From Sphingobacteriales bacterium (lineage in GTDB: Bacteria > Bacteroidota > Bacteroidia > Sphingobacteriales > Sphingobacteriaceae), in NCBI GenBank assembly GCA_025353765.1, contig JANXOD010000041.1:87502-125589 (forward strand): a stretch of DNA of 38,088 nucleotides. The letters are read 5' to 3'. Position 1 is the first letter of the stretch. Each line of letters begins with the position of its first letter. The translations under genes were made by a program, and so were the position numbers. Under the pieces are notes generated by a model. The model saw nothing but the letters and a program-made list of their open reading frames with translations. It was not told where the DNA came from and made no database searches. Positions 1 to 19,178 of the stretch are shown one piece after another.

Positions 1-186
1 AAATTGTTGCACCTCCTCTTAAACCACAATGGTTACTACAAGTATTTGCTTCAGTTGGACAGGATACATTAGTTCCTGGCGGCTTAACATATCCTCCTTG
101 TATTTTACTCATTTCTTCGTTTGTCAAGTTTGAAATTTTCTCTTTTTTAACTGCAATTTTGCAGTGTCTAAATTAATCGTTTTTAT
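1..186 (-). pseudogene. Decayed lanthipeptide-type precursor (runs off left edge)
   Basis: This is a fifth copy of the RiPP precursor family seen at 413-550 and 2047-2921. The leader is still readable (KTINLDTAKLQL, then ISNLTNEEMSKIQGG), followed by a core with CPTEANTCSNHCGLRGGATI before the window ends. Two lesions break it. The codon at 184-186, where the sister copies have ATG, is ATA. The A-run in the leader has six A where the sisters have seven, so the frame shifts and a stop follows within a few codons. No other start codon in the shifted frame lies upstream of the GG site. The promoter-like box upstream is kept. The 3' end is outside the window, so further damage cannot be judged. 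A rare ATA start plus a sequencing slip is possible but needs two coincidences. Confidence 0.75.
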
Positions 187-215
187 CTTTTTATTAGTTT
201 TAGTTAATCAAAGAC

Positions 216-223
216 TAAATATA
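216..223 (-). promoter_or_regulatory. Promoter-like -7 box of the dead precursor
   Basis: On the minus strand this reads TATATTTA, one base from the Bacteroidota -7 consensus TAnnTTTG. It lies 30 bases before the former start codon. The same box followed by GTCTTT and ATTAAC precedes the 413-550 copy at the same spacing, so the whole 5' region is duplicated with the gene. A TTG lies about 16 bases further upstream. Confidence 0.4.
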
Positions 224-347
224 GTTGCAATTGAAGTGGCAATAAAACAATTTATGTAGATTTTTTGTTATTATCGAAATAAATATCTTTGATAGTTTTA
301 AGGTGGGTAATAGTTACAATATGTTTTTTTGGAGATTAGAAAATAAA

Positions 348-397
348 AGTAATAAAGAAGCCTATTGGTTATATAACCAATAGGCTTCTTTATTACT
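348..397 (-). terminator. Terminator after the 45-aa precursor
   Basis: This is a perfect 50-base palindrome (25-bp arms, centre between 372 and 373) whose core pairs AAGAAGCCTATTGGTT with its complement. It begins 15 bases past the stop codon of the minus-strand gene at 413-550. Because it is symmetric it could work in both directions. The following minus-strand bases are T-rich. Confidence 0.75.
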
Positions 398-412
398 AAA
401 AAAAGAAAAGAA

Positions 413-550
413 TTAGAAACAAATTCTTCGAGAGTTAGAGGTTAGTTGAAGTGCACCACCTTGTACTTTAGTCATTTCTTCTTTTGTTAAGCTAGAAATT
501 TTCACTTTTTTTAACTGCAATTTTGCAGCGTCTAAATTAATTTTTTTCAT
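413..550 (-). CDS. Small RiPP (class I lanthipeptide-type) precursor, 45 aa
   Basis: This is a 45-residue peptide of the Bacteroidota GG-leader precursor family. The leader begins MKKINLDAAKLQLKK and ends EEMTKVQGG at about residue 32, a double-glycine cleavage site like those of the other copies here. The predicted core is only 13 residues (ALQLTSNSRRICF), with one Thr, two Ser and a single Cys near the C-terminus, so at most one thioether ring could form. The core is unlike those of the other four copies, which is usual for RiPP families where leader and core evolve separately. It lies downstream of the LanC-like gene with its own promoter-like box and a strong terminator, so it may be its own transcription unit. 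The family call rests on the leader; modification of so short a core is inference. Confidence 0.75.
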   Translation of the reverse strand: MKKINLDAAKLQLKKVKISSLTKEEMTKVQGGALQLTSNSRRICF

Positions 551-579
551 CTTCTTATTAGTTTTAGTTAATTAAAGAC

Positions 580-587
580 TAAATATA
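580..587 (-). promoter_or_regulatory. Promoter-like -7 box of the 45-aa precursor
   Basis: The minus strand reads TATATTTA, 30 bases upstream of the ATG at 548-550, followed by GTCTTTAATTAAC as in the other copies. This differs from TAnnTTTG only in the last base. No clear TTG -33 element is seen. Confidence 0.4.
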
Positions 588-669
588 ACTGTAATTAAAG
601 TAGAAATAACATTATTAATGTAATTTATTTGTTACTATAGAAAATAATTTTCGAAAAATAAAAATTCTA

Positions 670-1866
670 TTAATCATTCAGCATAAGGCAATAATCCCAA
701 CTGAAATCGCTGGTAAGGTAACTCAATAACACAAGTCCTATTCCTGCCGCACCCTCCAACAGGCCATAGTCATTTTCAAAAGTGCTAGTAACAGGGTTGT
801 GTTGTTTATATCCTGCTACTCCATCCTCATAAGTGGCAAAATCAAGGGTTTTTTGTATCCAAAAGTCACAAGCCTGTTTAAAAATGGAGTCTTTTGTATA
901 ATGCCACATTTTATTATAGATATGGGCAATCCCAGCAGCACCATGGCAAATACTGGCATCCATTACTCTGGCTTCAGCCAGATCTTGCCTTTTTGTAGAA
1001 TGTACTAATACCTCTAATGAAAAATCTCTTGTTTTTTGATCGTTAAAAAGAAGCCCTGCCTGATATAATACATAACCTATGCTTAAATCGCCATAACACC
1101 AGGCCAGGCGGCTTGGCGTATTTATTTCTTTATTAACTTCTACAGAATATGGAAAGTAGCTTGAGCTTTTGTCTTCGTTGGTATGTGTTGTTAGATAATT
1201 GATAATATCTTGCGCCATTAACCTGGCTTCTGTAGCACAAACATTTTGCTTATAGCATTGCATACAAAACTTGAGAATGCTGGGTATTCCATGTGAGAGC
1301 CCCAAATTAATTTGAATAGGATCAAATTGCTTTTTTTCGGAATCATAATTAGGAATAGTTATTTTTTCTGTGCTCTTATTAGCCAATAAGTTAAGAAGAA
1401 CAAAAACACGGGAATAAAACTCAGTAAACAAGCTGCTTTTTGCATAAAGCAAATGATAAGCAATGCCTGTTGCTCCATGAAGAAAATCATAATTATCATT
1501 TTCTAATAGGCTTAAAGCAGTTTTAGCTAATTCATTATCATCTTCGCATAAAAACTCCCAATCTTCTTTATCTATCAGTTCATTTTTATATAAAAAAGTA
1601 AAAAACCAGTTGATACCGGCTTTCCCACTGCTAAAAGTGGGATAAGTATAATTATAAAGAAGTGCATCTTCGGCAATTTGTTGAAGAGTATCTTGTTGAA
1701 TCTCGTTTTGAGATTCAATATTACTTGTTACACTAAGATATTTTAAGTACATGAAGTTATAGAGAGCCTCACCAGCTTTTCCTCCAATTAAAGATAAAGA
1801 GGGTGAGGGGTCTTTGGACAGTTCAGAATAAATTTTACTTAAAATAGGTTCTATGAGTTTGTTCAT
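670..1866 (-). CDS. LanC-like lanthionine synthetase (cyclase)
   Basis: This 398-aa protein is a LanC-type zinc cyclase, which joins Cys thiols to dehydrated Ser/Thr in precursor peptides to form lanthionine rings in the cytoplasm. The family's repeats of the double alpha-barrel are visible: HGATGIAYHLL near residue 130, GLSHGIPSIL at 189-198, WCYGDLSIGY at 256-265, CHGAAGIAHIY at 307-317 and GLLEGAAGIGLVLL near 368. The zinc ligands Cys257, Cys307 and His308 and the catalytic-type His192 are all present, so the enzyme looks active. Its length fits stand-alone LanC rather than a LanM fusion. Precursor genes lie on both sides on the same strand. No LanB dehydratase is in the window, so a partner must lie outside, most likely to the left. 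The start ATG follows an A/T-rich leader with no Shine-Dalgarno, as usual in this phylum. Confidence 0.9.
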   Translation of the reverse strand: MNKLIEPILSKIYSELSKDPSPSLSLIGGKAGEALYNFMYLKYLSVTSNIESQNEIQQDTLQQIAEDALLYNYTYPTFSSGKAGINWFFTFLYKNELIDKEDWEFLCEDDNELAKTALSLLENDNYDFLHGATGIAYHLLYAKSSLFTEFYSRVFVLLNLLANKSTEKITIPNYDSEKKQFDPIQINLGLSHGIPSILKFCMQCYKQNVCATEARLMAQDIINYLTTHTNEDKSSSYFPYSVEVNKEINTPSRLAWCYGDLSIGYVLYQAGLLFNDQKTRDFSLEVLVHSTKRQDLAEARVMDASICHGAAGIAHIYNKMWHYTKDSIFKQACDFWIQKTLDFATYEDGVAGYKQHNPVTSTFENDYGLLEGAAGIGLVLLSYLTSDFSWDYCLMLND

Positions 1867-1996
1867 TTTATTTTAAACTAAGGTGTTATGATATGTGAGC
1901 TTTGTCAATTGTTTTCTTCTTAATTTAAATTACACATTTATATCCGTTTCTAATCATAAAACTAATAATTTAGCAAAACACAGAATTGAAAGACAT

Positions 1997-2027
1997 AAAA
2001 AAACCCATCGCTTCCGACAGGCTTTTA
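1997..2027 (-). terminator. Terminator after precursor 2047-2241
   Basis: On the minus strand AAAAGCCTGTCG and CGATGGGTTTT pair with some G-U wobbles around a GAAG loop, followed by a T-run. It lies about 20 bases past the stop codon and separates this precursor from lanC. Confidence 0.65.
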
Positions 2028-2046
2028 AATTTTATTGAGTGATGTT

Positions 2047-2241
2047 CTATTGCACAACAACACTACCGCAACTAATATGGCAACCATTGCTTGTCCAACA
2101 TATTGTATTACTTGGGCAAGGGTATGTCTTTCCTGGATAAATAGAGCCTCCCACTATCCAAGTCATTTCTTCGTTTGTCAAGTTTGAGATTTTTTCTTTT
2201 TGCAACTGCAATTTTGCAGAGTCTAATTTCATTCTTTTCAT
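2047..2241 (-). CDS. RiPP (class I lanthipeptide-type) precursor, 64 aa, four-Cys core
   Basis: The leader starts MKRMKLDSAKLQLQKEKISN and reaches a double glycine at about residue 32 (EEMTWIVGG). The predicted 32-residue core is rich in Ser/Thr and has four Cys (PCPSNTICWTSNGCHISCGS), the best lanthipeptide-like core in the locus: up to four thioether rings could form with the LanC-like enzyme at 670-1866. The leader ends TWIVGG where the sisters have SKIQGG or SNVQGG, so the peptidase site is a little different. It has its own terminator. The start is the ATG at 2239-2241; a second ATG three codons in is possible, but the sisters support the first. The ring pattern cannot be read from sequence. 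Confidence 0.8.
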   Translation of the reverse strand: MKRMKLDSAKLQLQKEKISNLTNEEMTWIVGGSIYPGKTYPCPSNTICWTSNGCHISCGSVVVQ

Positions 2242-2303
2242 CTTTTTATGCTTAATAGTTTTGAAAAAAGTTTTTCTTGTATAATGCTTTTTTAAGTATA
2301 AAA

Positions 2304-2337
2304 TATAAAAGCCCGCTAGTTTTTATGTAGCAGGCCC
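2304..2337 (-). terminator. Terminator after precursor 2363-2581
   Basis: On the minus strand GCCTGCTA pairs with TAGCGGGC (one G-U pair), with a loop of about nine bases and then TTTTATATTTT. It lies about 25 bases past the stop codon. Confidence 0.7.
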
Positions 2338-2362
2338 TAATATGTTGTTAACATAAATTTAA

Positions 2363-2581
2363 TTAATAGCCTCCTTTTAATGGATTTGGATTGATATAAA
2401 TTGTTCCTCCATTACGTGGGCAAGCTTGGGTATTACATTTATCATCACCCGTTTGTGCTCGTTCGGTTGTATGTGTTACAATTCCTCCTCCCTGTATTTT
2501 ACTCATTTCTTCGTTCGTCAAGCTTGAAACTTTCTCTTTTTTTAACTGCAATTTTGCAGAGTTTAATTTAATTCTTTTCAT
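2363..2581 (-). CDS. RiPP (class I lanthipeptide-type) precursor, 72 aa
   Basis: The start is taken at the ATG at 2579-2581, giving the family leader MKRIKLNSAKLQLKKEK; a longer frame adds 17 residues upstream that none of the sisters has. The leader ends EEMSKIQGGG near residue 33. The core has many Thr in its first half and two Cys (KCNTQAC), then GGTIYINPNPLKGG and a final Tyr. That 14-residue tail is identical in the precursor at 2700-2921, while the middle of the core differs, so the two arose by duplication. The gene follows that one on the same strand, with a terminator between them. Product and modification are inferred from leader and neighbours. Confidence 0.8.
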   Translation of the reverse strand: MKRIKLNSAKLQLKKEKVSSLTNEEMSKIQGGGIVTHTTERAQTGDDKCNTQACPRNGGTIYINPNPLKGGY

Positions 2582-2643
2582 TTTGTAAAGCTTTATCGAA
2601 TTATTGGAGTTCTTTATAATATAAAAGAACAATTGGAAAATAC

Positions 2644-2676
2644 AAAAGCCTGCTGTTGTATATATAACAGACTTTT
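2644..2676 (-). terminator. Terminator after precursor 2700-2921
   Basis: On the minus strand AAAAGTCTGTT pairs with AACAGCAGGCTTTT with a small bulge, ending in a T-run. It lies about 25 bases past the stop codon. Confidence 0.6.
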
Positions 2677-2699
2677 AGATTTGATTAACTCAATTGTGA

Positions 2700-2921
2700 T
2701 TAATTACCTCCTTTTAATGGATTTGGATTAATGTAAATTGTTCCTCCAACAGCTGGGCAATTATTACTGCATCTTACATTTTCACTTTGTTGTAAGCGAT
2801 TCGTAACTGTTAAAACTACTGAGCCTCCACCTTGAACATTGCTCATTTCTTCATTTGTTAGTTTTGAGATTTTCTCTTTTCGTAACTGCAATTTTGCAGA
2901 ATCTAATTTAATTCTTTTCAT
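2700..2921 (-). CDS. RiPP (class I lanthipeptide-type) precursor, 73 aa
   Basis: This is the first gene of the minus-strand locus. The leader MKRIKLDSAKLQLRKEKISK ends EEMSNVQGGG near residue 33. The core has Ser/Thr residues in its first half, two Cys in CSNNC, and the tail GGTIYINPNPLKGG followed by Asn. Cores here, at 2363-2581 and in the decayed copy at the left edge share the pattern Cys, three or four residues, Cys, about three residues, then GG and an Ile, so this looks like one product class with a fixed C-terminus. A promoter-like box with a TTG 18 bases upstream precedes it (2954-2961). The family call rests on the leader and the LanC-like neighbour. Confidence 0.8.
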   Translation of the reverse strand: MKRIKLDSAKLQLRKEKISKLTNEEMSNVQGGGSVVLTVTNRLQQSENVRCSNNCPAVGGTIYINPNPLKGGN

Positions 2922-2953
2922 TTTGTTTTCGGTTTTGTTTGTTAATTAAAGAT

Positions 2954-2961
2954 TAAATATA
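2954..2961 (-). promoter_or_regulatory. Promoter-like -7 box of the first precursor
   Basis: The minus strand reads TATATTTA, preceded by TTG at a distance of 18 bases and followed by ATCTTTAATTAAC. It starts 33 bases before the ATG. The downstream bases match those in front of the copies at 413-550 and 1-186. Confidence 0.45.
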
Positions 2962-3418
2962 CTTATTCTTTATAATTAGCAATGATTTATTTTGTAATAA
3001 TTTTGTTACTTAACCAAAATAATTCTTTTGTTCAAAAAAATATTTTTTATGTTTAAACATGCACTTTAGTTAAATTAAATGAGTGTATCGGCTAATTAAT
3101 ATATTTAATCCTGTAATATGTATTTTATTGTTAGTTAATACGTCTTATAAAACGTATCGGGTTTAGGAAGAAAAATATTTTCAAGTAAAGGTAAAAATAG
3201 CTAATTGTAAAACTCAAAATCTCTCTTATTATATAAATTTACTTAGTTATCTATTGTAAATTTCCTGTAGCTCTCAGCCAAAAATAAATTAATACAGCAG
3301 GAGTTTATCAAAATACTTAATGTAGAAATTTTTATTACTTTAGCTAAATATATATTCTAAAATATTTTCTTTTTGAAAAATATTTGTCTTCTAATTTATA
3401 TTTTAATTTTCTAAAAAG
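2962..3418. other. Divergent intergenic region, very A/T-rich
   Basis: This gap of roughly 460 bases separates the minus-strand RiPP locus from the plus-strand prenylation operon. It must hold the operon's promoter, but I see no exact TAnnTTTG box, no convincing small reading frame, no RNA gene and no clear repeat in it. Confidence 0.6.
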
Positions 3419-4207
3419 TTGAATTATATACTATATCCCAAGAGCTACAAAAATGCTACTCCTTTAGATGTATACAATAATGTATGTCTTCTAAATAGTC
3501 ATGATAAGAGTAATGAAGTATTTTTTAATATGCCAATTACAAGCTCCGGAGCGAGGAGATTAATACCAAAGGACGAAAAGCCGAGCCGTAATCGAATTAT
3601 AGAAATAGCATTGCAAAATATTAACGTCGCCCAATGCTTAATTACAGCTGCTGCAAAGTATTTGCCTGATTATGCAGCTATAGGTAGCTCGGTTGATTTT
3701 GGCTTGTGGGAAGGTTGGGGAGAGATGGAATATATGAAATACTGGTTCTATCATATATCTGGTATTGGGGTATCTGCAGCCAAGAAATTTGAAGATGATA
3801 TTAAAAATAGAGAGCATATCAATCATACAGTTATGAATGATTATGCACAGTGTCATCATGATAGAGAAGTACTATATGAACAACTCCTCCATACATTTTG
3901 CCAATCTATTAAAGATAATGACATAAAAGTTAACCCGGTCGGCCGTATGATAGCATTGCCAGATGCAGTTAATTCACTTGGTTGCCGTACTGAAATACGT
4001 TTAGCGCAATTTTTAGGAATTAATATATCCATACTTCAACTTGATACTAAACATGATAAATTCGAGAATTTAGAGTGCCATATTATATGGAACAAAATTT
4101 CTGAAGTTGACGATACCTTTTTAATCCCAAAGCTAGAACATGATGGTTCAAAGCTTATACATTTTACAAAACTATCTATGGATTCATTGCAAACAATTAA
4201 TTTTTGA
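3419..4207 (+). CDS. Unrecognised 262-aa protein, weakly nucleoside deoxyribosyltransferase/N-glycosidase-like
   Basis: I do not recognise this protein with confidence. Near the N-terminus EVFFNMPITSSGARR (33-47) looks like a beta strand and phosphate-type loop. Near the C-terminus a stretch at 178-206 has the spacing IALPDAVNSLGCRTE, then LAQFLGINISIL. That recalls the pattern of nucleoside 2-deoxyribosyltransferase-like folds (Asp, small residues, Gly, catalytic-region Glu, then Ala, Gly and a hydrophobic strand). The middle has many aromatic residues. There is no signal peptide or membrane segment. The start is TTG, the only option that keeps the first strand; an in-frame stop lies five codons upstream and the first ATG is at residue 38. 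It is followed 20 bases later by the isopentenyltransferase gene, so a role on a nucleotide or its base is plausible. The fold assignment is inference. Confidence 0.5.
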   Translation: MNYILYPKSYKNATPLDVYNNVCLLNSHDKSNEVFFNMPITSSGARRLIPKDEKPSRNRIIEIALQNINVAQCLITAAAKYLPDYAAIGSSVDFGLWEGWGEMEYMKYWFYHISGIGVSAAKKFEDDIKNREHINHTVMNDYAQCHHDREVLYEQLLHTFCQSIKDNDIKVNPVGRMIALPDAVNSLGCRTEIRLAQFLGINISILQLDTKHDKFENLECHIIWNKISEVDDTFLIPKLEHDGSKLIHFTKLSMDSLQTINF

Positions 4208-4227
4208 TGATATGAATAGTTTTTAAC

Positions 4228-4959
4228 ATGAAAAAAATACCGAGATTATTTATTATAACGGGGCCTACTTGCACAGGTAAAACAGCCGCTGTTAATGCTC
4301 TGCTAGAGAGCAATAAAAAAACGCATGTAATTTGTTTTGATTCTTGCCAAATTTACCAGGATTTTGCAATTGGTACAGGAAGAGCAGATGCTTTATTTTC
4401 GGAAAGATCCCACTTGTATGGATACCGTGATTCGCGTAAGGCGCTGTCGGTTTCAGAATATATAGAGGATTTACTGGCAAAGTATCACGAAATTATAAAC
4501 CAAGGTGGACTTCCGTTTCTCGAAGGAGGATCTCGTAGTTATATGAAGGCTTTATGCGAATTAGAAAAAGAAGGAAAAATTTCCTTGGTTATTGTTGGTT
4601 TAAAACCACCTAGTGACACATATATAAATACTTGCTTTGTAAGAAGAACAGAGGGATTTGTAGAGGAAGGTATCTTGGAAGAAATAGAGCAAAATATCAA
4701 CAAGGAAATGGGAGAGTCATTTCTTATGAGGAATTATGAAGTTTATCAGCCATTCGTACAATATTTACAAAAAAAACTAAGCCTGGAGGAGGCTAAACAA
4801 CTGGTTATACAACGAATGAAAGAAATGCATGAAGATCAATACAATACATTTAGAAGAATGCTTAATATTTCATGGTTAACTGTTACTGAGCCTAATTGCT
4901 TAGATATTTTAACAGCTATTTTTGATGAGCATGTTTCAGAGCTATATCAAATTGCTTAA
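4228..4959 (+). CDS. Isopentenyltransferase of the IPT/MiaA superfamily (short, IPT-like)
   Basis: This 243-aa P-loop protein is a prenyltransferase that would move the dimethylallyl group from DMAPP to an adenine N6. Residues 12-19 read GPTCTGKT, the P-loop form of adenylate isopentenyltransferases (Ipt/Tzs) rather than the usual MiaA form GPTAVGKT/S. Asp38 in CFDSCQIY fits the catalytic Asp, IGTGR at 48-52 recalls the TGSGR of Ipt, and FLEGGSRSYM near 96-105 matches the Ipt EGGS loop. The C-terminal half has MiaA-like features (GLKPP, then GILEEI, then FRRM). At 243 aa it is close to Ipt (about 240) and shorter than MiaA (about 300), and it lacks room for the tRNA anticodon-binding insert, so a small nucleotide acceptor is more likely than tRNA. 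The neighbouring IPP isomerase would supply DMAPP. Confidence 0.8.
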   Translation: MKKIPRLFIITGPTCTGKTAAVNALLESNKKTHVICFDSCQIYQDFAIGTGRADALFSERSHLYGYRDSRKALSVSEYIEDLLAKYHEIINQGGLPFLEGGSRSYMKALCELEKEGKISLVIVGLKPPSDTYINTCFVRRTEGFVEEGILEEIEQNINKEMGESFLMRNYEVYQPFVQYLQKKLSLEEAKQLVIQRMKEMHEDQYNTFRRMLNISWLTVTEPNCLDILTAIFDEHVSELYQIA

Positions 4960-4971
4960 AGATTTTTACAT

Positions 4972-5988
4972 ATGAAATCATCGTCAAATATAATTGCAAA
5001 TAGGAAGAGCGAACATATTGATACAGTTCTTACTAAAAATGTGCAAGCTGTAAAAAGTGGGTTATTTCAGTTTAAGCTTCCTTATAGCACATTGCCAGAA
5101 GTTAACTATAATGATGTAGATTCTGGCATAGATTTCTTGGGGAAAAAATTAAGTTTCCCTTTTCTCATTTCCTCTATGACTGGAGGACCAGAGGAAACCG
5201 GATTCATAAACAAAAATCTTGCAAGTGCTGCCGAAGAAATGAAAGTAGGATTGGGGTTGGGATCTATGCGTGTTGTTTTAAAACATCCCCAAACCTCAAA
5301 AAGCTTTGATGTACGGCAGTACTGCCCTTCAATCCCTTTATTCGCAAATATTGGCTTAGTTCAATTAAATTATGGTGTGGGAGTTGATGAAATCAATTAT
5401 CTGATAAAATTATTTAAAGCCGATGGTATATTCTTACATGTCAATCCTATTCAGGAAGTTATACAACCAGAGGGTGATACAAATTTCGCAGGCTTGTTAG
5501 ATAAGCTGGCTTCCATTATTGATAAGATTGATGGGCATGTTATATTGAAAGAAGTAGGAACCGGTTTTGATCAGCAAACTGCTCAACAACTTAAAAATAT
5601 TGGTGTAAAATGGATTGATGTTTCGGGCATGGGTGGTACTTCATGGACATTGGTTGAGGGACATCGAAGGGATGATGACTTAGGTGAACTATTCAGAAAT
5701 GAGGGCTATACAACAGTCGAGTCTTTAAAAGCTTTAGTAAAAGTGGAAGGGTTAAATCTTATAGCCGGCGGAGGATTGAGATCAGGGCTAGATATAGCGA
5801 AGGTACTCATGCTTGGAGCAGAGGTAGCAACTGCTGGTACTCCTTTATTAAAACCGGCCTTAGAAAGCGTGGATCAATGCATTCATGTTATAAATCAATT
5901 AAAAAAAGAATTGCAAATTTCTATGTTTATTGCAGGAGTAAAAACCATTCATGAGCTAAAGAGCAAATCTTTAATTTTCATCAACTAG
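4972..5988 (+). CDS. fni: Type 2 isopentenyl-diphosphate delta-isomerase
   Basis: This 338-aa enzyme is the FMN-dependent isomerase that interconverts IPP and DMAPP. Family motifs are in order: RKSEHID near residue 11, SSMTGG near 67, GLGSMR near 98 (usually GSQR), HVNPIQEVIQPEGDTNF near 161 with the Gln and Glu that bind substrate and Mg, DVSGMGGTSW near 216, and AGGGLRSGLDIAK followed by ATAGTPLLK for the flavin phosphate. It starts 12 bases after the isopentenyltransferase and shares its strand, so the two are almost surely co-transcribed. That context suggests dedicated DMAPP supply for prenylation. The GSQR to GSMR change is odd but conservative in place. No signal peptide is present; the enzyme is cytosolic. 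Confidence 0.9.
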   Translation: MKSSSNIIANRKSEHIDTVLTKNVQAVKSGLFQFKLPYSTLPEVNYNDVDSGIDFLGKKLSFPFLISSMTGGPEETGFINKNLASAAEEMKVGLGLGSMRVVLKHPQTSKSFDVRQYCPSIPLFANIGLVQLNYGVGVDEINYLIKLFKADGIFLHVNPIQEVIQPEGDTNFAGLLDKLASIIDKIDGHVILKEVGTGFDQQTAQQLKNIGVKWIDVSGMGGTSWTLVEGHRRDDDLGELFRNEGYTTVESLKALVKVEGLNLIAGGGLRSGLDIAKVLMLGAEVATAGTPLLKPALESVDQCIHVINQLKKELQISMFIAGVKTIHELKSKSLIFIN

Positions 5989-6391
5989 ACATTATTTATT
6001 CTTCAATATCTCCTGGTAACTTAGACAATTTTAAAATCTAAAAGATAATTTTTATAATTGACGAAAAGTTGGTGATGGAGTTTGTATAGGCAATTATTTA
6101 TGCTATTTGTGATCGAAAGCTCATGCAAGCTTCATAATTTTTTGCTCATAGCAAATTAAGCCAATATTAATTCTGCATTAGTTAATACTAACTCTGTATC
6201 ATTTTTATTACAGTTAATTATTTATCGTTTTTTTGTATTTACTTTCGTTAAGTAATTTTTTGATTCAAAATTTAGAAAACAAATTCCCTTATATCGTATA
6301 AATATATTTATTTAAATAAATATATTCTTAATATAATATATTAATTATTATAGAGAAATAAAATAATTTCATCCATAACTTAATTTGCTTT
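5989..6391. other. A/T-rich intergenic region before the T9SS cargo genes
   Basis: About 400 bases without a gene. I see no clear terminator for the prenylation operon. A perfect all-A/T palindrome lies at 6301-6326 and TACTTTCG at about 6241 is a weak -7 candidate. No small coding frame or RNA gene is evident. Confidence 0.55.
6301..6326. repeat. 26-bp perfect A/T palindrome
   Basis: AATATATTTATTT is followed directly by its reverse complement. It lies 66 bases before the start of the first T9SS cargo gene. It could be a protein-binding site or simply a low-complexity coincidence in a region that is almost all A/T. Confidence 0.4.
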
Positions 6392-8134
6392 ATGATTATA
6401 AATTTACTTAAATCAAGAATCAAGAGAAATATTTTTATTGTTTTTGTATTTCTCTTAAATTTTACTTTTTTACCAGATTCAACTCATGCCCAGTTAAGCA
6501 AAAGCTGGGATAAAGATTTTGGTGGATTGGCAGGAGGAAATAACGATCAATTTACCACTACTATTCCAACTCCGGATGGTGGATATCTTTTAGCAGGATC
6601 TTCTAATTCTAATCAGAGTTTTTTTAAAATATCTAATTGTAAGGGTAATTTTGATTTTTGGATTATTAAAATATCTGCTACAGGTGTTTGGCAATGGGAT
6701 AAAACATTTGGAGGAACCCAAGAAGATTTGTTGCAATGCATCAGCAGGACAGCGGATGGTGGATATCTTTTAGGAGGTTCGTCTAAATCAAACATACTCG
6801 CTCCAGATAAAAGCCAAAATTCATTTGGAGATCGTGATTTTTGGATTATTAAAATTGATGCCAATGGAAACAAACTCTGGGATAAAACCTTTGGAGGAAC
6901 TGGCGCAGATGAATTAAGAAGTATTGTACCAACAGCAAGCGGTTTTATATTGGGTGGTTATTCAGATTCCAATTCAGGCGGAAGCAAAACCGAAAATAGC
7001 AAAGGAGCAACAGACTATTGGATTGTTAGTATAGATAACAATGGTAATAAGCTCTGGGATAAAACTATTGGTGGAAATGGAAATGATTATCTTCTTACAA
7101 TGATTCCTTATTCAAATGGACTATTACTTGGTGGTTATTCATATTCTAATATAAGCTCTGATAAAAGCCAGTCATCTCGAGGTTTAGAAGGAAATTCAGA
7201 TTATTGGGTAGTTAAAGTAGATAATTCTGGGTCAAAAATATGGGATATTACTTTAGGCGGCTTTGGCGATGAAACACTAAATGCCATGATAGGAACCCGG
7301 GATGGTGGTGTTCTTCTTGCCGGGCATTCCTTTTCGGGAAAAAATGGAGATAAAACAACCGATAATTTTGACCCCAATAATACCGGAGATTTTTGGGTGG
7401 TAAAAATCATTGAAAATACTCTCAAAAATGGAGCTATAGAAAAATGGGATAAATCATTTGGAGGAAATGACCATGATCTTTTATATGATATAATAGGAAC
7501 CAGCGATGGAAATTACCTCTTAACAGGGGCATCAATTTCTGGTGTAAGTGGAAATAAAACGTACACTAATAAAGGTGGCTATGACTATTGGATTGTGAAA
7601 ATGGACCCTAATGGGAATAAAATATGGGACGTAGGGTATGGAGGTAATAAAGATGAGTATGCACAAAAATTAGTTGCAGTTTCTGATGGTTATCTTTTGG
7701 GAGGATATTCTCAAACTGCTATTAATGGAGATAAAACACAAAATAACTTAGGAGGTAATGATTATTGGGTAATAAAGTTATTGCCTACAAGCACATTTAG
7801 CCTGGTAAATACCATGTCTGGGATGTCTGGAAATTACTTGGAGCAATATAACCTTAAGGAGACTGCCGATTCTCCTTTGCCTGAAAAGCCACTCCTTTAT
7901 CCTAACCCTGCCACAGAACAAGTCACATTAGCTGTGAGTATTTTAGAAAACACACTGGTAGATATTTCTATAATCAATTCCATAGGAGTTCCAGTTTATC
8001 TCTCTTCAGAGATCGGCAAGAGTAAAAACTATATTAAAACTATGGATGTCTCAGGCCTTGCAGCCGGAACTTATTCTGTAAGGATAGATATGGGCATATA
8101 TAGTATTATACAGCAATTAATAATTGTTAAATAA
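6392..8134 (+). CDS. Secreted T9SS cargo with propeller-like repeats
   Basis: This 580-aa protein has a signal peptide (hydrophobic IFIVFVFLLNFTFL, cleavage near THAQ at about residue 34), then about seven repeats of 55-65 residues, and a T9SS type A sorting domain in its last 80 residues (starting LLYPNPATEQ, ending QLIIVK). Each repeat has the theme DGGYLLGGSS, a GDK-type turn, DYWIVK, DGNK and WDKTFGG, which suggests a beta-propeller. It would be exported by Sec, crossed through the outer membrane by T9SS, and attached to the surface or released. No enzyme motif is seen. It is the first of three such genes; the next starts 36 bases after its stop, so an operon is likely. Its sorting domain is less like those of the other three cargos here. 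Confidence 0.85.
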   Translation: MIINLLKSRIKRNIFIVFVFLLNFTFLPDSTHAQLSKSWDKDFGGLAGGNNDQFTTTIPTPDGGYLLAGSSNSNQSFFKISNCKGNFDFWIIKISATGVWQWDKTFGGTQEDLLQCISRTADGGYLLGGSSKSNILAPDKSQNSFGDRDFWIIKIDANGNKLWDKTFGGTGADELRSIVPTASGFILGGYSDSNSGGSKTENSKGATDYWIVSIDNNGNKLWDKTIGGNGNDYLLTMIPYSNGLLLGGYSYSNISSDKSQSSRGLEGNSDYWVVKVDNSGSKIWDITLGGFGDETLNAMIGTRDGGVLLAGHSFSGKNGDKTTDNFDPNNTGDFWVVKIIENTLKNGAIEKWDKSFGGNDHDLLYDIIGTSDGNYLLTGASISGVSGNKTYTNKGGYDYWIVKMDPNGNKIWDVGYGGNKDEYAQKLVAVSDGYLLGGYSQTAINGDKTQNNLGGNDYWVIKLLPTSTFSLVNTMSGMSGNYLEQYNLKETADSPLPEKPLLYPNPATEQVTLAVSILENTLVDISIINSIGVPVYLSSEIGKSKNYIKTMDVSGLAAGTYSVRIDMGIYSIIQQLIIVK

Positions 8135-8169
8135 TCCAATCTCAATTAAATATTAATCCTAAAAATGAA

Positions 8170-9948
8170 ATGAAAAAGTCACTTTTTACAATTGGTATAA
8201 TAGCTTTAGCTATAAATGGATTTGCAGCTACTCCACCATTGACTAAAACATGGGATAAAGTAATTGGAAGTAGAGGCTTAGACCGGCTACAATGTGCTAA
8301 TCCTACTAAAGACGGAGGGTTTATTCTATCTGGTTTGTCAGATACAGGTCCTGGGGGAGTTAAACCGTTTAAAGGTTACGGGGGGACAGATATTTGGGTT
8401 GTTAAATTGAAAGCTGATAAACAAACTATTGAATGGCAGCAAATATTTGGTGGCATAAATGATGAAGGAACAGGAGGATGGGATTTTCCTGGCTCTTACA
8501 TAGAACAAACAACTGATGGTGGCTATATTTTTGGGACTTCTTCTGAATCAGGCATCGGGGGAAATAAAACAACTGCTAATAAAGGCAATAAAGATTATTG
8601 GATATTGAAGCTAGATCCTTTAGGAAATATAACTTGGCAGAAAGATTTTGGAGGAAATAATTCAGACCAATTTAGTATTGTTCATGAATTAAGAGACGGT
8701 TATATTATAGGAGGAAGTTCTAGCTCCTCTGTTGGAGGAGATAAAGGCTCAAGTCCTTATGGTGGAGCTGGGGACACAGATTATTGGGTAGTAAGACTTG
8801 ATAAATCAGGCAATAAAATTTGGGATTATACTTATGGAGGCAAGCAAGAAGATTACCTGACAAGCATGTTAGTGCTTAATAATACCGGCCACATATTATT
8901 AGGTGGAAATTCATCATCACCTGCCTTAAAAGGCAATAAAACAGCTCTTAGCAAAGGAGGATCTGATTATTGGGTTCTAGAAATAGATGATAATGGTGCA
9001 ATATATTGGGATCAATCTTATGGTGGAAGCGGAGACGAGTTTCTTACAGACATGGATGTGGATTACAAAAACCCTGAAACGGGTGAGGCATTGTTATTAG
9101 CGGGAACATCAAAATCCGATATCTCAGGAGATAAAACCGAAAAAAATAGGGATAATTCATTGCAAACAGATGATATATGGCTGCTTAAGTGCGATATATC
9201 AGGTGCAATTGAGTGGGATAAAACATTCGGTGTATCCTATTTTGATGATGTTAAAGATGCTAAGTTTATGCCAGACCACAATATTATTGTAGGAGGTAAT
9301 ACCTCGGCTGATGGTGGTTGGGGTGGATTTGAGTGGGGCGCAGGAACTGACAAATCTCAACCTAACATTGGAAGTACAGGAAACACTGATATTTGGATTC
9401 TTAAATTAGATGGTTCAACCGGAAGTAAAATATGGGATCAAAGTATTGGTACTACAGGATATGATTTATGTACAGCGATATGGTTAACTAGTGATAACGC
9501 TTTTTGGATTGGTGGCTTTACATCTGAAGATAATAATTTTACAAATGCTAATCATGATCGATCGCAAACGCTTTACGGAAGCACAGATTTTTGGATTTCT
9601 TTGTGGAAACCTACCAATTTGATAGTAGCTATTCCATGGGATCCTACTGTAACAATCGCTTTCCAGCAAACTGATCCCACGACTTTAAAAGAGCAAAGCT
9701 TACGTGTTAGTATTTATCCAAATCCTACTCAATCTGAACTTAATATTGAAACTTTTATATCCGAAAAAGGAGCTTTAGATATTCAAATAATTGATCCATC
9801 GGGAAGAGCTATTTATTCAGAAAAGGAAGAAGTTGAAGCAGGTCTTTATCAGCGAACACTAGAAATACGTGATTACCCCGCAGGTGTATATTACCTTAAA
9901 ATAACTGGTATTAGTGGTGAACGAACTCTCAAATTTATAAAAGAATAG
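8170..9948 (+). CDS. Secreted T9SS cargo with propeller-like repeats, paralogue of the previous gene
   Basis: This 592-aa protein has a signal peptide (MKKSLFTIGIIALAINGFAA), about seven repeats built like those of the gene before (WDKVIGS, DGGFILSG, DYWILKLD, WDQSYGG) and a C-terminal T9SS type A domain from SIYPNPTQSELNIETF to TLKFIKE. The repeats mark it as a paralogue of 6392-8134, but the sorting domain instead matches the genes at 10036 and 24804, so passenger and sorting module have different histories. The start is the ATG at 8170; an ATG five bases earlier runs into a stop at once. Surface or extracellular location is expected; the function is unknown. Confidence 0.85.
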   Translation: MKKSLFTIGIIALAINGFAATPPLTKTWDKVIGSRGLDRLQCANPTKDGGFILSGLSDTGPGGVKPFKGYGGTDIWVVKLKADKQTIEWQQIFGGINDEGTGGWDFPGSYIEQTTDGGYIFGTSSESGIGGNKTTANKGNKDYWILKLDPLGNITWQKDFGGNNSDQFSIVHELRDGYIIGGSSSSSVGGDKGSSPYGGAGDTDYWVVRLDKSGNKIWDYTYGGKQEDYLTSMLVLNNTGHILLGGNSSSPALKGNKTALSKGGSDYWVLEIDDNGAIYWDQSYGGSGDEFLTDMDVDYKNPETGEALLLAGTSKSDISGDKTEKNRDNSLQTDDIWLLKCDISGAIEWDKTFGVSYFDDVKDAKFMPDHNIIVGGNTSADGGWGGFEWGAGTDKSQPNIGSTGNTDIWILKLDGSTGSKIWDQSIGTTGYDLCTAIWLTSDNAFWIGGFTSEDNNFTNANHDRSQTLYGSTDFWISLWKPTNLIVAIPWDPTVTIAFQQTDPTTLKEQSLRVSIYPNPTQSELNIETFISEKGALDIQIIDPSGRAIYSEKEEVEAGLYQRTLEIRDYPAGVYYLKITGISGERTLKFIKE

Positions 9949-9954
9949 AAATAT

Positions 9955-9991
9955 ATAATTGATAGAATACAGATCGTATTCTATCAATTAT
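9955..9991 (+). terminator. Hairpin between two T9SS cargo genes
   Basis: A 16-bp perfect stem (TAATTGATAGAATAC with its complement plus one outer pair) around the loop AGATC, directly after the stop at 9948. There is no strong T-run, so it may be a weak terminator or an mRNA-processing or stabilising hairpin that tunes expression of the next gene. Confidence 0.55.
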
Positions 9992-10035
9992 TAGAAAATG
10001 TTACACACAATAAACTCACATTAAAATAAAAAATA

Positions 10036-11763
10036 ATGAAAACGAAACTTACTCTTATCATTTTATTTATTAATCTTCTTTGTCTTTTCACTTTCGATGC
10101 CAAAGCCCAATGGCAATGGGTGGATAAGGCTGGCGTTGGTTCTTTAGGTGACAGTCGTACAACAGCACTCGTTACAACTAAAAATGGAGATACGTATGCT
10201 ATAGGAGAATATAACGACGATATCACGGTGTTCCAAAACTTTGTTCTTAAATCTGCTGGTTATGGCACACGGAGTCCTTATGTTATAAAATATAATACAA
10301 ATGGAACCGTCAAGTGGGCATCAGGAATAATAACTTCAGGAGTTGGCTATGGTACTGCTATCGCTATTGATGAGAAAGAAAATGTTTACGTAACAGGATC
10401 ATTTACCGGTAAAGCCTACTTTGATAATAATTTTTGTTTATATAATGCAGGAAATAGTGCAGCCATGTTTATGGCAAAATATGATAAAGACGGCAACTTT
10501 TTATGGGCACAAAAACAAGATAATGTTTACCCTTATGGAATTGCAGTAGATAAATTTGGGAAAATAGATGTTACAGGAACTTATTTAGGTCAACTACAAA
10601 TTCAAAATACTTTTTTATTGTCACAAGGTTCTTCGGATATTCTTGTAGCACAATATGATAATGATGGTAAATTCTCATGGGCACAGGGAGCTGGTACAAA
10701 AGCTGAAGATTATGCCCTGGCTATAGCAACAGATAATCTCGGTAATATATTTATAACCGGAAATATTTCAAATGGTATGGCTAATTTTTCAGGACTGTCT
10801 TATGATAACTCAAAAGCTAACAAAGCGGCAACATTTTTAGCAAAATATGATTTAAAGGGGAACCCTAAATGGATAAGAACAGCTATAAGTTCAGAACCTA
10901 CGTCAAAATCAAGAGGAGCAGGAGTAGCATGTGATGAATTTGGAGATTGTTATATAACAGGTAGTTTTAATTTTAATATTAATTTTGGACAAAACATTGT
11001 TCTTGCTGGCGATGCTGACGATGATATTTTTACTGCGAAATATTCGACTGCAGGGAAAGTTATTTGGGCAAATTATGCAGGAGGACATACCAATCTTGGT
11101 GATATTCAACTGTTGGACGATGAAGGCTTGGGAATTGCCATTGATAAATCAGGTAGCGGTAATGTATTAATTACAGGTTATTTTGAAAGCAATGCGAAGT
11201 TTGGAAATCAGTCACTTATTTGCCAGGGAGAACAAGATATTTTTGTTGCAAAGTACGGTTACAATGGAGATTTTAAATCAGTTGTAACAGCTTTTGGTTA
11301 TTCTATACAAAAGTCTGCATGTATTTCAACTGATGCTTATAATAATTTTTATATTGGAGGGCGCTTCGCTGATGATGCTTATTTTGGATGGTCATTGTAT
11401 GTTGTAGGTAACCCTGGTTTGTATAATGCATACATTGGGAAATATCATACTTCAAATGAACAAAATCTCCCTTTAATAAATAGTGGAGAAACTTCAAGCA
11501 GTATAAGTGCAAGTTCGCGAATAAGCATTTATCCTAATCCTGCACAGTCAGAACTTAATATTGAAACTTTTGTATCCCAAAAAGGAGCTTTAGGTATTCA
11601 AATCGTTGATCCATCTGGAAGAGTGGTTTATTCAGAAAATAAAGAGGTTGCCTCAGGTATGTATCAAGAAAAAATACAGATACGAGATTATCCTGTTGGT
11701 GTTTATTATCTTAATATAACTGATGCCAGCAGTAAACAAACCATTAAGTTTGTGAAAGAATAA
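10036..11763 (+). CDS. Secreted T9SS cargo with SBBP-type propeller repeats
   Basis: This 575-aa protein has a signal peptide (LTLIILFINLLCLFTF, cleavage near DAKAQ) and eight or so repeats in the style of SBBP beta-propeller repeats (GYGTAIAIDEKENVYVTGSF, FMAKYDKDGNFLWAQ). A T9SS type A domain runs from SIYPNPAQSELNIETF to the end (TIKFVKE). The repeats differ from those of the two genes before, but the sorting domain is nearly that of 8170-9948. It is third in the cargo cluster, 87 bases after the previous stop and behind a hairpin, and it ends at a strong terminator. It would be a surface or secreted protein; I see no catalytic motif and cannot name a ligand. Confidence 0.85.
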   Translation: MKTKLTLIILFINLLCLFTFDAKAQWQWVDKAGVGSLGDSRTTALVTTKNGDTYAIGEYNDDITVFQNFVLKSAGYGTRSPYVIKYNTNGTVKWASGIITSGVGYGTAIAIDEKENVYVTGSFTGKAYFDNNFCLYNAGNSAAMFMAKYDKDGNFLWAQKQDNVYPYGIAVDKFGKIDVTGTYLGQLQIQNTFLLSQGSSDILVAQYDNDGKFSWAQGAGTKAEDYALAIATDNLGNIFITGNISNGMANFSGLSYDNSKANKAATFLAKYDLKGNPKWIRTAISSEPTSKSRGAGVACDEFGDCYITGSFNFNINFGQNIVLAGDADDDIFTAKYSTAGKVIWANYAGGHTNLGDIQLLDDEGLGIAIDKSGSGNVLITGYFESNAKFGNQSLICQGEQDIFVAKYGYNGDFKSVVTAFGYSIQKSACISTDAYNNFYIGGRFADDAYFGWSLYVVGNPGLYNAYIGKYHTSNEQNLPLINSGETSSSISASSRISIYPNPAQSELNIETFVSQKGALGIQIVDPSGRVVYSENKEVASGMYQEKIQIRDYPVGVYYLNITDASSKQTIKFVKE

Positions 11764-11913: not shown

Positions 11914-13344
11914 TTAGGATTGACAAAAGAATTGATCATTAAAATTTACCAGGAATAATTCTTTTGTAGTACGGGTAACGGCTGTATATAGCCATCTCAA
12001 AAAATCGGTATTCATCATTTCATCTGTTATATAACCCTGATCAATAAAAACGGCATCCCATTGTCCACCCTGAGCCTTATGACAGGTTACAGCAAAAGCA
12101 AATTTGATTTGCAGGGCATTATAATAGGGATCTTTTTTGAGTTCCATATTACGTAAACGTTTGTTTTCAATATGCTTATAATCTTCTGATACGGCTTCGT
12201 ATAAACGTTTGCTTTCTAAAGTAGATAAGCTGGGTGTTTCTGTATAAAGTGTATCCAGCATTACTTTGCATGTTAGTGGCTCTTCATCCGGGAAATCGAT
12301 CAATTCTAAAACAACTTCAGCAAATCTAAAACCATACTGTTCATGTACATTTTTCACTTTACGAACACATGCAATATCTCCATTGGCAATAAAACCTCCA
12401 TTATTTTCATCAGGTTGCAGCCAATAATAGTTATTTCTAACTACCATAATTAAATCACCACCCGTTAATTCTTCTTCGCGGTAAAGTATCCGATTACGGA
12501 TGTTTTGGTTAAATGCATTCGCATTTTTATTGGAACGGCAAATGACCAGTGTATTATCCATGCCATATTTGCTATACGAATAATTTAACCCTTCTACCAG
12601 ACGTTCGCCAGTCATACGGTAAATATCAGAATAGCCTTTGATGTTGAACTTTGGAAAAATCTGTGTTTCTGTACGGATAAGTTCCCTAATTTCTGTCGCA
12701 TTTTGGAGAATACCAGATTGTTTTTCCTGGCGCACAACATCAGTTAGTTCATAGCTAAATACTTCTAAATCGAAATTCTGTTGTAATACTTTCATATCCA
12801 AAGCCGCACTATAAGATGAGCCAACTGGAGGCAGTTGAGCAGTATCTCCCACTAACATTAATTTGCAGTTTTTATCATTATAAACATAACTCACTAAATC
12901 CTGCAAAAGACTTTTTCTGCTATATTCACTACTTTGATCTGAAATCATAGATGCTTCATCTACAATAAAGAGCGTATTTTCTGAAAGGTTTTCGCCTAAT
13001 GTAAAACTCATATCGGGTGTCATCGCTGATTTTTTACGATAGATCCTTTTATGAATGGTAAAGGCTTTTTTCCCCGAATAGTTACTGATCACTTTTGCAG
13101 CTCTTCCGGTAGGAGCCAGCAACACAGATTTGATGGCAATTTTGGGCAAAACTTTAACCAATGCACTGATCAGTGTAGTTTTACCTGTTCCGGCATATCC
13201 TTTAAGCAAAAAGCATTCATTGTTATTTAATGCCTTTAGAAATTTTTGCAAAATGCCAAAAACCTCTTGCTGCTGTGCTGTAGGAGTTTTGCCAAATTGC
13301 TGTTCTAATAAAATATGAATATCATTCATGTTTGCAAATTGCAT
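11914..13344 (-). CDS. RecD-like ATP-dependent DNA helicase (SF1)
   Basis: This 476-aa cytosolic helicase belongs to the RecD/Pif1-like branch of superfamily 1. Motif I (GYAGTGKTT) lies near residue 49, motif II (LFIVDEASM) near 150, motif III (GDTAQLPPVGSSY) near 182, and the C-terminal UvrD_C_2 part has VTCHKAQGGQWDAVFID and LYTAVTRTTKELFLV. All ATPase motifs are intact. It would unwind DNA during repair or recombination. It is much shorter than RecD2 (about 700 aa) and lacks an N-terminal HhH region, as do many Bacteroidota homologues. The start may instead be the ATG five codons later (13329), which gives the more usual N-terminus MNDIHILLEQ. It converges on the T9SS cluster and is divergent from the DUF3822 gene. 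Confidence 0.85.
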   Translation of the reverse strand: MQFANMNDIHILLEQQFGKTPTAQQQEVFGILQKFLKALNNNECFLLKGYAGTGKTTLISALVKVLPKIAIKSVLLAPTGRAAKVISNYSGKKAFTIHKRIYRKKSAMTPDMSFTLGENLSENTLFIVDEASMISDQSSEYSRKSLLQDLVSYVYNDKNCKLMLVGDTAQLPPVGSSYSAALDMKVLQQNFDLEVFSYELTDVVRQEKQSGILQNATEIRELIRTETQIFPKFNIKGYSDIYRMTGERLVEGLNYSYSKYGMDNTLVICRSNKNANAFNQNIRNRILYREEELTGGDLIMVVRNNYYWLQPDENNGGFIANGDIACVRKVKNVHEQYGFRFAEVVLELIDFPDEEPLTCKVMLDTLYTETPSLSTLESKRLYEAVSEDYKHIENKRLRNMELKKDPYYNALQIKFAFAVTCHKAQGGQWDAVFIDQGYITDEMMNTDFLRWLYTAVTRTTKELFLVNFNDQFFCQS

Positions 13345-13462
13345 AATCTGGCTGATGTTGTCTGCACATAAACCAAAAATATTAGATATGTATTCGTACT
13401 TAAATTGTAATTTACGCCTTTATTAAAATCATCATTTTAGAATAGAAAATTAAATTGCTTTA

Positions 13463-14841: not shown

Positions 14842-14919
14842 ATATAAAAATTGTATCTTCTTTTTGCTTGATCTGATCATTCTTTATTTCGTTTATTAAA
14901 AAAATCAAAAACATTTTGT

Positions 14920-14965
14920 ATTTCATTTATATATTTAGATATTTGTCTAAATATATAAATGAAAT
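14920..14965 (+). promoter_or_regulatory. Inverted-repeat operator covering the start of the ArsR-family gene
   Basis: Twenty-base arms (ATTTCATTTATATATTTAGA and its exact complement) flank the six-base spacer TATTTG. The right arm ends inside the ATG of the regulator gene at 14964. The length and symmetry suit a dimeric winged-helix repressor, so self-repression by the adjacent gene product is likely. Confidence 0.65.
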
Positions 14966-15218: not shown

Positions 15219-15222
15219 AACC

Positions 15223-15882: not shown

Positions 15883-15908
15883 TGCTACAATATATAAACA
15901 CATACAAA

Positions 15909-16859: not shown

Positions 16860-16916
16860 CATACGATATCCGCCATTCTAAACAAATATAGCTGGATTTT
16901 TATAAATATATAAGGC

Positions 16917-17897: not shown

Positions 17898-17906
17898 TAA
17901 ATATTC

Positions 17907-19176: not shown

Positions 19177-19178
19177 TC

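What the first reader, a model, noticed from the sequence alone, without database searches (positions are those of the whole stretch)
3419..5988. Three-gene operon that may make a prenylated adenine (cytokinin-like) compound
A short isopentenyltransferase with Ipt-type motifs (GPTCTGKT, TGR, EGGS) sits 12 bases before a type 2 IPP isomerase, and both follow a 262-aa protein with weak nucleoside-N-glycosidase-like spacing. Together they give DMAPP supply, prenyl transfer to a nucleotide and possibly release of the base: a complete small pathway with no LOG-type phosphoribohydrolase in sight. The lack of a tRNA-binding insert in the transferase argues against plain MiaA. The first gene would be a new partner for this chemistry. 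Isopentenyltransferase and isomerase are called from motifs; the pathway and the role of the first protein are inference.
Basis: partly seen in the sequence, partly recalled or inferred. Interest (0 to 1): 0.78.

Follow-up and report, generated by a model that had tools for sequence, protein, structure and literature searches.

The report
Unusual prenyl-adenine operon, new wiring
A small set of three neighbouring bacterial genes looks like a home-made pathway for a plant-hormone-like prenylated adenine, built from a tRNA-modifying enzyme that has lost its tRNA-binding part and, possibly, a base-releasing enzyme different from the usual one.

Summary
The three ORFs are real, co-directional and tightly spaced. 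ORF3 (4972-5988) is a type 2 IPP isomerase (355.6 bits, cut-off 281.3), the only one over the cut-off in 60 genomes, own included. ORF2 (4228-4959) is a MiaA-kind prenyltransferase that lacks the tRNA-binding insert and much of the basic C-terminal strip but keeps P-loop, Asp38 and Arg140. It resembles MiaA (PDB E 6e-17), not adenylate IPT Tzs (0.14), and has Ser where reviewed bacterial AMP-IPTs have Arg. A separate full-length miaA exists. ORF1 (3419-4207) is an orphan; its only family match is nucleoside 2-deoxyribosyltransferase (PHROG 355, E 3e-4 to 1e-3) over one stretch carrying S-x-G-x-x-x-E with the spacing of nucleotide hydrolases DNPH1 and MilB. Structure prediction did not settle its fold. 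Two LOG-family genes lie elsewhere in the genome. With a class I lanthipeptide cluster the operon is absent from the matching stretch of eight congeners. Best reading: DMAPP supply, prenylation of a free adenine nucleotide, base release by a non-LOG N-glycosidase; the last two steps are inferred. No second operon was found.

The parts
3419..4207 (+). ORF1, 262 aa, TTG start; orphan protein, possible nucleotide N-glycosidase of the nucleoside 2-deoxyribosyltransferase (NDT) superfamily
   Evidence: only family match phrog_355 at E 9.8e-4 whole, 3.2e-4 C-terminal half; none in Pfam, NCBIfam or PADLOC
3974..3994 (+). ORF1 residues 186-192, S-x-G-x-x-x-E; proposed phosphate-binding Ser/Gly and catalytic Glu192
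   Evidence: S186, G188, E192 invariant in an alignment with six NDT/DUF4406 domains; same spacing as DNPH1 Ser87/Gly89/Glu93 and MilB Ser97/Gly99/Glu103
3515..3544 (+). ORF1 residues 33-42, EVFFNMPITS; falls on the first strand 'iYiAGPmTg' of the superfamily in two alignments (weak)
   Evidence: MAFFT alignments A1 and A4; not reached by any profile match
4228..4959 (+). ORF2, 243 aa; insert-less MiaA-type dimethylallyltransferase
   Evidence: PF01715 in two stretches (profile 1-73 and 150-242), TIGR00174 81 bits (cut-off 148.65), alignment to nine MiaA-type proteins
4261..4284 (+). P-loop GPTCTGKT, ORF2 residues 12-19
4339..4344 (+). Asp38-Ser39: putative general base, followed by Ser as in MiaA, not Arg as in bacterial adenylate IPTs
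   Evidence: residue roles from PMC8234997 section 5
4558..4563 (+). point where the about 73-aa MiaA insertion (tRNA-binding) domain is missing
4816..4851 (+). MKEMHEDQYNTF, ORF2 residues 197-208, in place of the basic TRxxAKRQxTWF strip of MiaA
4972..5988 (+). ORF3, 338 aa, type 2 isopentenyl-diphosphate delta-isomerase
   Evidence: TIGR02151 355.6 bits, cut-off 281.3; alone over the cut-off in 60 genomes, own included
670..1866 (-). LanC-like cyclase of the neighbouring class I lanthipeptide cluster (context, not part of the pathway)
   Evidence: PF05147 128.8 bits
2047..2921 (-). three lanthipeptide precursor genes (2047-2241, about 2363-2581, 2700-2921); context
   Evidence: leader families on the middle one; ORFs; repeat copies

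Best explanation
A three-gene cassette, probably acquired horizontally, that makes a free N6-prenylated adenine compound. ORF3 turns IPP into DMAPP in a cell whose relatives lack this enzyme. ORF2, a MiaA derivative that has lost its tRNA-binding domain, moves the dimethylallyl group to N6 of a free adenine nucleotide or nucleoside. ORF1, a nucleotide N-glycosidase of the deoxyribosyltransferase superfamily (DNPH1/MilB type), cleaves the prenylated nucleotide to the free base, doing what LOG does elsewhere. Shown by sequence: identity of ORF3, and kinship and domain loss of ORF2. Weakly supported: superfamily of ORF1. Inferred: acceptor of ORF2, reaction of ORF1, product and its role.
For: ORF3 is over the TIGR02151 cut-off, 1 of 60 genomes over the cut-off, 1 of 201 family genomes at E<=1e-30 (own included in both), in a genome with IspH, so extra DMAPP supply is its likely purpose. 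ORF2 keeps P-loop, Asp38 and Arg140, lacks the insert, and has Glu202-Asp203 where all nine compared MiaA-type proteins have Lys-Arg; a full-length miaA is there for tRNA. ORF1: the only match in four profile libraries is NDT; a home-made NDT profile gives it 9.5 bits against at most 3.8 for 500 shuffles and 4.1 for 107 other stop-free frames; S-x-G-x-x-x-E as in DNPH1 and MilB. DNPH1 binds N6-isopentenyl-AMP (Ki 3.3 and 2.0 uM, rat and human). A prenyltransferase and an IPP isomerase gene that were linked when acquired and serve a cytokinin-driven disease are known in P. savastanoi.
Against: The ORF1 match covers only about 27-37 residues; the hit is too weak to appear at E<=1e-4 in the genome search with phrog_355; single-sequence AlphaFold pLDDT 32; a model aided by NDT rows has mean pLDDT 50 and no fold match at E<=0.001; forced global hhalign of ORF1 to NDT has 1% probability. 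ORF2 has Ser39, not Arg, next to the base. DNPH1 is inhibited by, not shown to cleave, ribonucleotide cytokinins. In P. savastanoi idi was not needed for cytokinin production in culture; trans-zeatin even rose without it (abstract). No second operon was found to test linkage. Two LOG-family genes exist elsewhere, so ORF1 is not needed for release. No CHASE receptor domain was found in the genome.
Confidence: 0.4

Rival explanations
1. ORF2 still prenylates an RNA: a trimmed MiaA acting on a small or unstructured RNA, or a subset of tRNAs through a partner such as ORF1. ORF3 supplies DMAPP.
For: MiaA-like active site including Asp38-Ser39; sequence closest to MiaA; ORF1 is unassigned and could be an RNA-binding partner (its best PDB sequence hit, E 0.0064, is named Nonstructural RNA-binding Protein 34, but E was 0.52 for a sub-stretch).
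Against: Whole insertion domain missing and basic strip changed; a full-length miaA already exists.
Confidence: 0.15
2. The cassette makes a prenylated nucleoside or tailored metabolite other than a cytokinin base, possibly working with the adjacent lanthipeptide cluster, with ORF1 as a transglycosylase rather than a hydrolase.
For: Lies with LanB, LanC and precursors in a stretch that eight congeners lack, with seven precursor-type repeats; the NDT superfamily includes transferases and antibiotic-pathway enzymes such as MilB.
Against: No tailoring or export gene was seen next to ORF1-3, though not every neighbour was scanned (8170-9948 was not); divergent orientation; lanthipeptide genes and cassette could be separate acquisitions.
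Confidence: 0.17
3. ORF1 has nothing to do with nucleotides; the NDT match is a chance local likeness and ORF1 is only a neighbour of an ipt/idi pair. The pair's product is released by the genome's LOG proteins.
For: Short match only; no fold support; two LOG-family genes with PGGFGT motifs in the genome.
Against: The one family of 38,880 reported (E<=10, though HMMER's filters drop most matches above about 0.1) is the one predicted beforehand; catalytic spacing as in DNPH1 and MilB; 20-nt gap in one operon.
Confidence: 0.22
4. A standard bacterial adenylate IPT of the Tzs/Ptz kind plus idi, as in gall-forming bacteria.
For: PF01745 matched over positions 2-203 of 233 in one stretch, 44.4 bits; ipt/ptz/tzs genes appear among weak plasmid hits, ptz at E 2e-3 and the others shown at E 0.3 or worse, one covering 81% of ORF2; ptz and idi precedent.
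Against: The genome's own MiaA scores higher on PF01745 (49.0 against 44.1 bits); Tzs E 0.14 versus MiaA 6e-17; Asp-Ser, not Asp-Arg.
Confidence: 0.06

Closest known systems
MiaA (tRNA dimethylallyltransferase, TIGR00174/PF01715)
   Same: Core motifs, P-loop, Asp38-Ser39, GGS, Arg140; best sequence match
   Different: Lacks the about 73-aa tRNA-binding insert and the TRxxAKRQ strip; 81 bits against a cut-off of 148.65; 18 of 57 columns invariant in nine MiaA-type proteins kept
Plant adenylate isopentenyltransferases (AP-IPT; hop 3a8t)
   Same: IPPT domain with the middle missing: profile 74-149 absent here, about 75-140 in Arabidopsis AP-IPT according to PMC6071968
   Different: Distant in sequence (E 0.044); Ser39 where the hop enzyme has Lys
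Bacterial adenylate IPTs Tzs/Tmr/Ptz/FasD (PF01745)
   Same: Short, insert-less, PF01745 matched through position 203 in one stretch
   Different: MiaA-like by score, no Asp-Arg pair
ptz/idi of Pseudomonas savastanoi
   Same: Prenyltransferase and IPP isomerase genes linked when first acquired, both needed for full tumours (PMC7472798 abstract and section 11)
   Different: In pv. [quoted passage not shown] no N-glycosidase-like gene in what I read; idi not needed for cytokinin production in culture
DNPH1 (Rcl) and MilB nucleotide N-glycosidases
   Same: S-x-G-x-x-x-E spacing
   Different: ORF1 has no detectable match outside this stretch and about 140 residues between the putative first strand and the motif
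LOG cytokinin phosphoribohydrolase
   Same: Proposed reaction
   Different: ORF1 has no match to PF03641 or any Pfam family; LOG-family genes are elsewhere

Membership tests
Type 2 IPP isomerase | TIGR02151 score over the curated cut-off, full length | tested here: met
   355.6 versus 281.3 bits, residues 10-336 on profile 1-336 of 338
MiaA | TIGR00174 score over the cut-off | tested here: not met
   81 versus 148.65 bits
MiaA | tRNA-binding insertion domain | tested here: not met
   missing between residues 111 and 112
MiaA | P-loop and catalytic Asp | tested here: met
   G12, T14, G17, K18, D38 kept
Bacterial adenylate IPT (PF01745) | PF01745 over cut-off, along most of the profile | tested here: inconclusive
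   44.4 bits (cut-off 20), 2-203 of 233, but the cut-off does not separate: 262 of 296 phylum genomes have a match over it, in the printed rows mostly N-terminal matches in frames of about 300 aa taken as MiaA
Bacterial adenylate IPT (PF01745) | Arg after the catalytic Asp (contacts AMP phosphate) | tested here: not met
   Ser39; rule from PMC8234997 section 5
Bacterial adenylate IPT (PF01745) | prenylation of AMP | not testable with these tools
   needs an enzyme assay
NDT superfamily nucleotide N-glycosidase (DNPH1/MilB) | S-x-G-x-x-x-E catalytic motif | tested here: met
   S186, G188, E192
NDT superfamily nucleotide N-glycosidase (DNPH1/MilB) | profile match over the whole domain | tested here: not met
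   only residues 178-214 at most match
NDT superfamily nucleotide N-glycosidase (DNPH1/MilB) | flavodoxin-like alpha/beta fold | tested here: inconclusive
   models of low confidence; no fold match at E<=0.001
LOG | PF03641 match | tested here: not met
   ORF1 has no Pfam match reported at E<=10, and the own-genome search shows none on this contig

The most novel reading that the evidence does not exclude
A further, separate origin of a free-nucleotide prenyltransferase, made in bacteria from MiaA by loss of the tRNA-binding domain (the architecture that plant adenylate IPTs also have), coupled in one operon to a new cytokinin-releasing enzyme of the DNPH1/MilB kind in place of LOG, giving a complete prenyl-adenine pathway in a lineage where none is described in the papers I read.
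Probability: 0.28. Interest if true: 0.75.

Novelty: new variant of a known kind. Interest (0 to 1): 0.52.

Why it matters
If true it shows that tRNA modification enzymes can be turned into hormone-type synthases more than once, and it gives a candidate for a LOG-independent one-step release of cytokinin bases; my searches listed no such enzyme. Both halves can be tested with two small proteins and commercial N6-isopentenyl-AMP. It would also point to prenyl-adenine as a signal or weapon in a bacterium with type IX sorting tails, next to a lanthipeptide cluster.

Tried and rejected
Homologue searches that led nowhere. ORF1 in genome contigs (7 stretches matched a pattern, none confirmed) and viral contigs, plasmids and phages up to E 10 (one unrelated weak hit each), 60 relatives (own only). 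In 395 phylum genomes two weak hits besides the own one: E 9.8e-5 over 48 residues inside a 1049-aa frame (about 0.04 expected over 395 genomes; I read its DNA and went no further), and E 0.007 in a frame with a stop. ORF2 in viral contigs (8 stretches, none confirmed). ORF3 in genome contigs: 44 stretches matched peptide patterns, none confirmed; the patterns were stretches of one protein, not the conserved ones, so this is a blunt negative. ORF3 in plasmids: 162 records with a match, 60 rows listed, identity at most 39.9% in those rows, neighbours not examined.

PF01745 as a test for short IPTs was rejected: it does not separate them from MiaA. In the rows printed there (the table was cut) ORF2 was the only match running to profile position 203; the others printed end at 121 or before.

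ORF1 structure: the single-sequence model is useless. A second model with 23 phage NDT rows reached pLDDT 77-85 in the ten-residue blocks 151-210 only; it is partly circular, since the rows were NDTs, so I do not count it. Foldseek: of 256 PDB matches the 50 listed include no NDT and are led by adenine phosphoribosyltransferases at E 0.27 or worse; of 145 viral matches the 50 listed include two named as deoxyribosyltransferases, at E 0.59 and 2.0.

Bacteroidota-type promoter motif (recalled, not from a call) on the + strand upstream of ORF1: none in 2901-3500. No Rfam match at gathering score in 1-8000. No tRNA gene in L166; transposases and other mobile genes were not searched for. PADLOC: ORF2 gives a weak mad8 match, 17.9 bits, read as the shared P-loop.
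Full report
What is there. Three ORFs on the + strand, 3419-4207, 4228-4959 and 4972-5988, with gaps of 20 and 12 nt. Their codon index (0.69-0.70) lies at the low end of 14 reference genes of the window (0.67-0.78). ORF1 starts with TTG; the frame is open only four codons further up (266 against 262 aa), so its true start is close to that place.

ORF3. TIGR02151 (type 2 IPP isomerase) 355.6 bits over a cut-off of 281.3. Of 60 genomes, the own one and 59 relatives, it is the only one with a match over the cut-off; 55 others have weaker matches at E<=0.001, nearly all to the C-terminal third of the profile, read as other FMN or TIM-barrel enzymes. With the protein as query at E<=1e-30, 1 of 201 genomes of the family, the own one. 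The genome has IspH, so it probably makes IPP and DMAPP by the MEP route, and the isomerase is an addition.

ORF2. Pfam IPPT matches in two stretches, profile 1-73 and 150-242, with the middle missing; MiaA profile 81 bits, below its cut-off. Against solved structures: MiaA 2qgn 6e-17, 2zm5 5e-11, hop adenylate IPT 0.044, Tzs 0.14 (that the 2ze5 entry is Tzs is recalled and agrees with PMC6071968, which names 2ze5 as the Agrobacterium IPT). Aligned with nine MiaA-type proteins (the genome's own and eight from other genomes, taken as MiaA from their matches and lengths), 57 columns are invariant in the nine; ORF2 keeps 18, changes 25 and lacks 14. Kept: P-loop, Asp38, Ser39, Gln41, Gly100-Gly101, Arg140. 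Lost: the insert of about 73 residues between residues 111 and 112, and Lys-Arg to Glu202-Asp203; the 15-residue strip has net charge +1 against +3 to +6. PMC8234997 (passages) describes the small insertion domain as one side of the tRNA cleft, so loss of tRNA binding is a fair inference. The genome has a full-length miaA elsewhere (273.9 bits). In section 5 of the same review, bacterial adenylate IPTs have Arg after the catalytic Asp; ORF2 has Ser, as MiaA does. So ORF2 is MiaA-like, not Tzs-like, and its acceptor is open. PMC6071968 (passages) says that the Arabidopsis adenylate IPTs lack about 75-140 of the IPPT profile; ORF2 lacks 74-149: the same architecture. No tree was built.

Rarity. 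ORF2 as query at E<=1e-14 in 395 phylum genomes: 2 with a match, the own one and a match of 106 residues in a 307-aa frame, taken as MiaA. Weaker short IPTs would have been missed at that limit.

ORF1. No family in Pfam, NCBIfam (both E<=10) or PADLOC (E<=1). In PHROGs one family, phrog_355 nucleoside 2-deoxyribosyltransferase, E 9.8e-4 for the whole protein and 3.2e-4 for the C-terminal half, residues 178-214 of ORF1. A profile built from 18 NDT/DUF4406 domains, run on 611 sequences, put ORF1, its C-terminal part and its stop-to-stop copy in the first three places: ORF1 9.5 bits; best of 500 shuffles 3.8; best of 107 other stop-free frames 4.1. hhalign local: probability 45%, pairwise E 2.2e-4; forced global: 1%. 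The stretch holds S186-x-G188-x-x-x-E192. In DNPH1 Ser87, Gly89 and Glu93 contact phosphate and ribose (PMC3834327, passages); in MilB Ser97 and Gly99 bind substrate and the E103A protein is inactive (PMC4081090, passages): the same spacing. The alignments also put EVFFNMPIT (33-41) on the first strand, but no profile reaches there. Structure work failed to decide. I give ORF1 as an NDT-superfamily protein about 0.5.

Link to the chemistry. DNPH1 binds N6-isopentenyl-AMP with Ki 3.3 (rat) and 2.0 uM (human) (PMC3834327 section 22), as an inhibitor; that an enzyme of this superfamily hydrolyses it is not shown in what I read. MilB cleaves a ribonucleotide monophosphate in an antibiotic pathway. 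The genome also has two LOG-family genes, with PGGFGT sequences, so a LOG route cannot be excluded. No CHASE domain was found in the genome.

Context. Left of the operon, on the - strand, lies a class I lanthipeptide cluster: LanB (PF04738, PF14028), LanC and seven copies of a 138-nt repeat, four of which lie on a listed precursor-like ORF. Right of it are three large proteins in a row, 6392-11763; two were scanned and carry type IX sorting tails. The helicase left of the island was found in 13 of 15 same-genus genomes examined besides the own one; stretches from 9 of the 13 were fetched. In eight of the nine the DEAD helicase and the conserved block from the RecD-like helicase to the ClpB-like gene stand 3-7 kb apart, with the block inverted, and none encodes LanB, LanC, the three precursors, ORF1-3 or the three large proteins at E<=1e-5; the ninth ends too early. 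So operon and lanthipeptide cluster lie in a stretch not shared by these eight; whether they came together is unknown, and absence was tested for these stretches, and genome-wide only for ORF1 and the isomerase.

Known parallels. ptz and idi of P. savastanoi were linked when first acquired and both are needed for full tumours, but idi was not needed for cytokinins in culture (PMC7472798, abstract and section 11). R. fascians has an ipt with a LOG gene in the fas operon (PMC8234997, passages). PMC6071968 places IPT-domain genes in Actinobacteria, Cyanobacteria, Proteobacteria and Dictyostelium (passages). My paper searches (listings only, apart from the five papers named) listed nothing like this operon; most subscription papers are not held.

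Verdict. Real operon; isomerase certain by sequence; transferase a domain-deleted MiaA relative; first gene a plausible but unproven N-glycosidase. The pathway claim stays an inference at 0.4.

Noticed in passing
window 670-2921 (-) and L166 1266-8466: Class I lanthipeptide cluster with one LanB, one LanC and seven copies of a 138-nt repeat, four of them on a listed precursor-like ORF: a large precursor set.
   Followed up: partly
window 6392-11763 (+): Three consecutive large proteins, the two scanned with type IX sorting tails, absent from the matching stretch of eight congeners; internal repeats of about 60 codons.
   Followed up: partly
L166 824-1028: Short repeat array (21- and 42-nt steps, CATTTGGA units) just past the 3' end of the LanB gene.
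   Followed up: no
window 11914-22378 versus L157-L162, L164, L165: The conserved block from the RecD-like helicase to the ClpB-like gene is inverted relative to eight congeners; the island lies at the boundary.
   Followed up: partly
L166 5850-5899: Perfect 25-nt inverted repeat with no loop, between precursor repeat copies.
   Followed up: no
L041 1501-1644: 48-residue likeness of ORF1 residues 85-132 (AIG..GLW.GW...YM) to part of a 1049-aa frame in another genome, E 9.8e-5; about 0.04 expected by chance over the 395 genomes searched.
   Followed up: no
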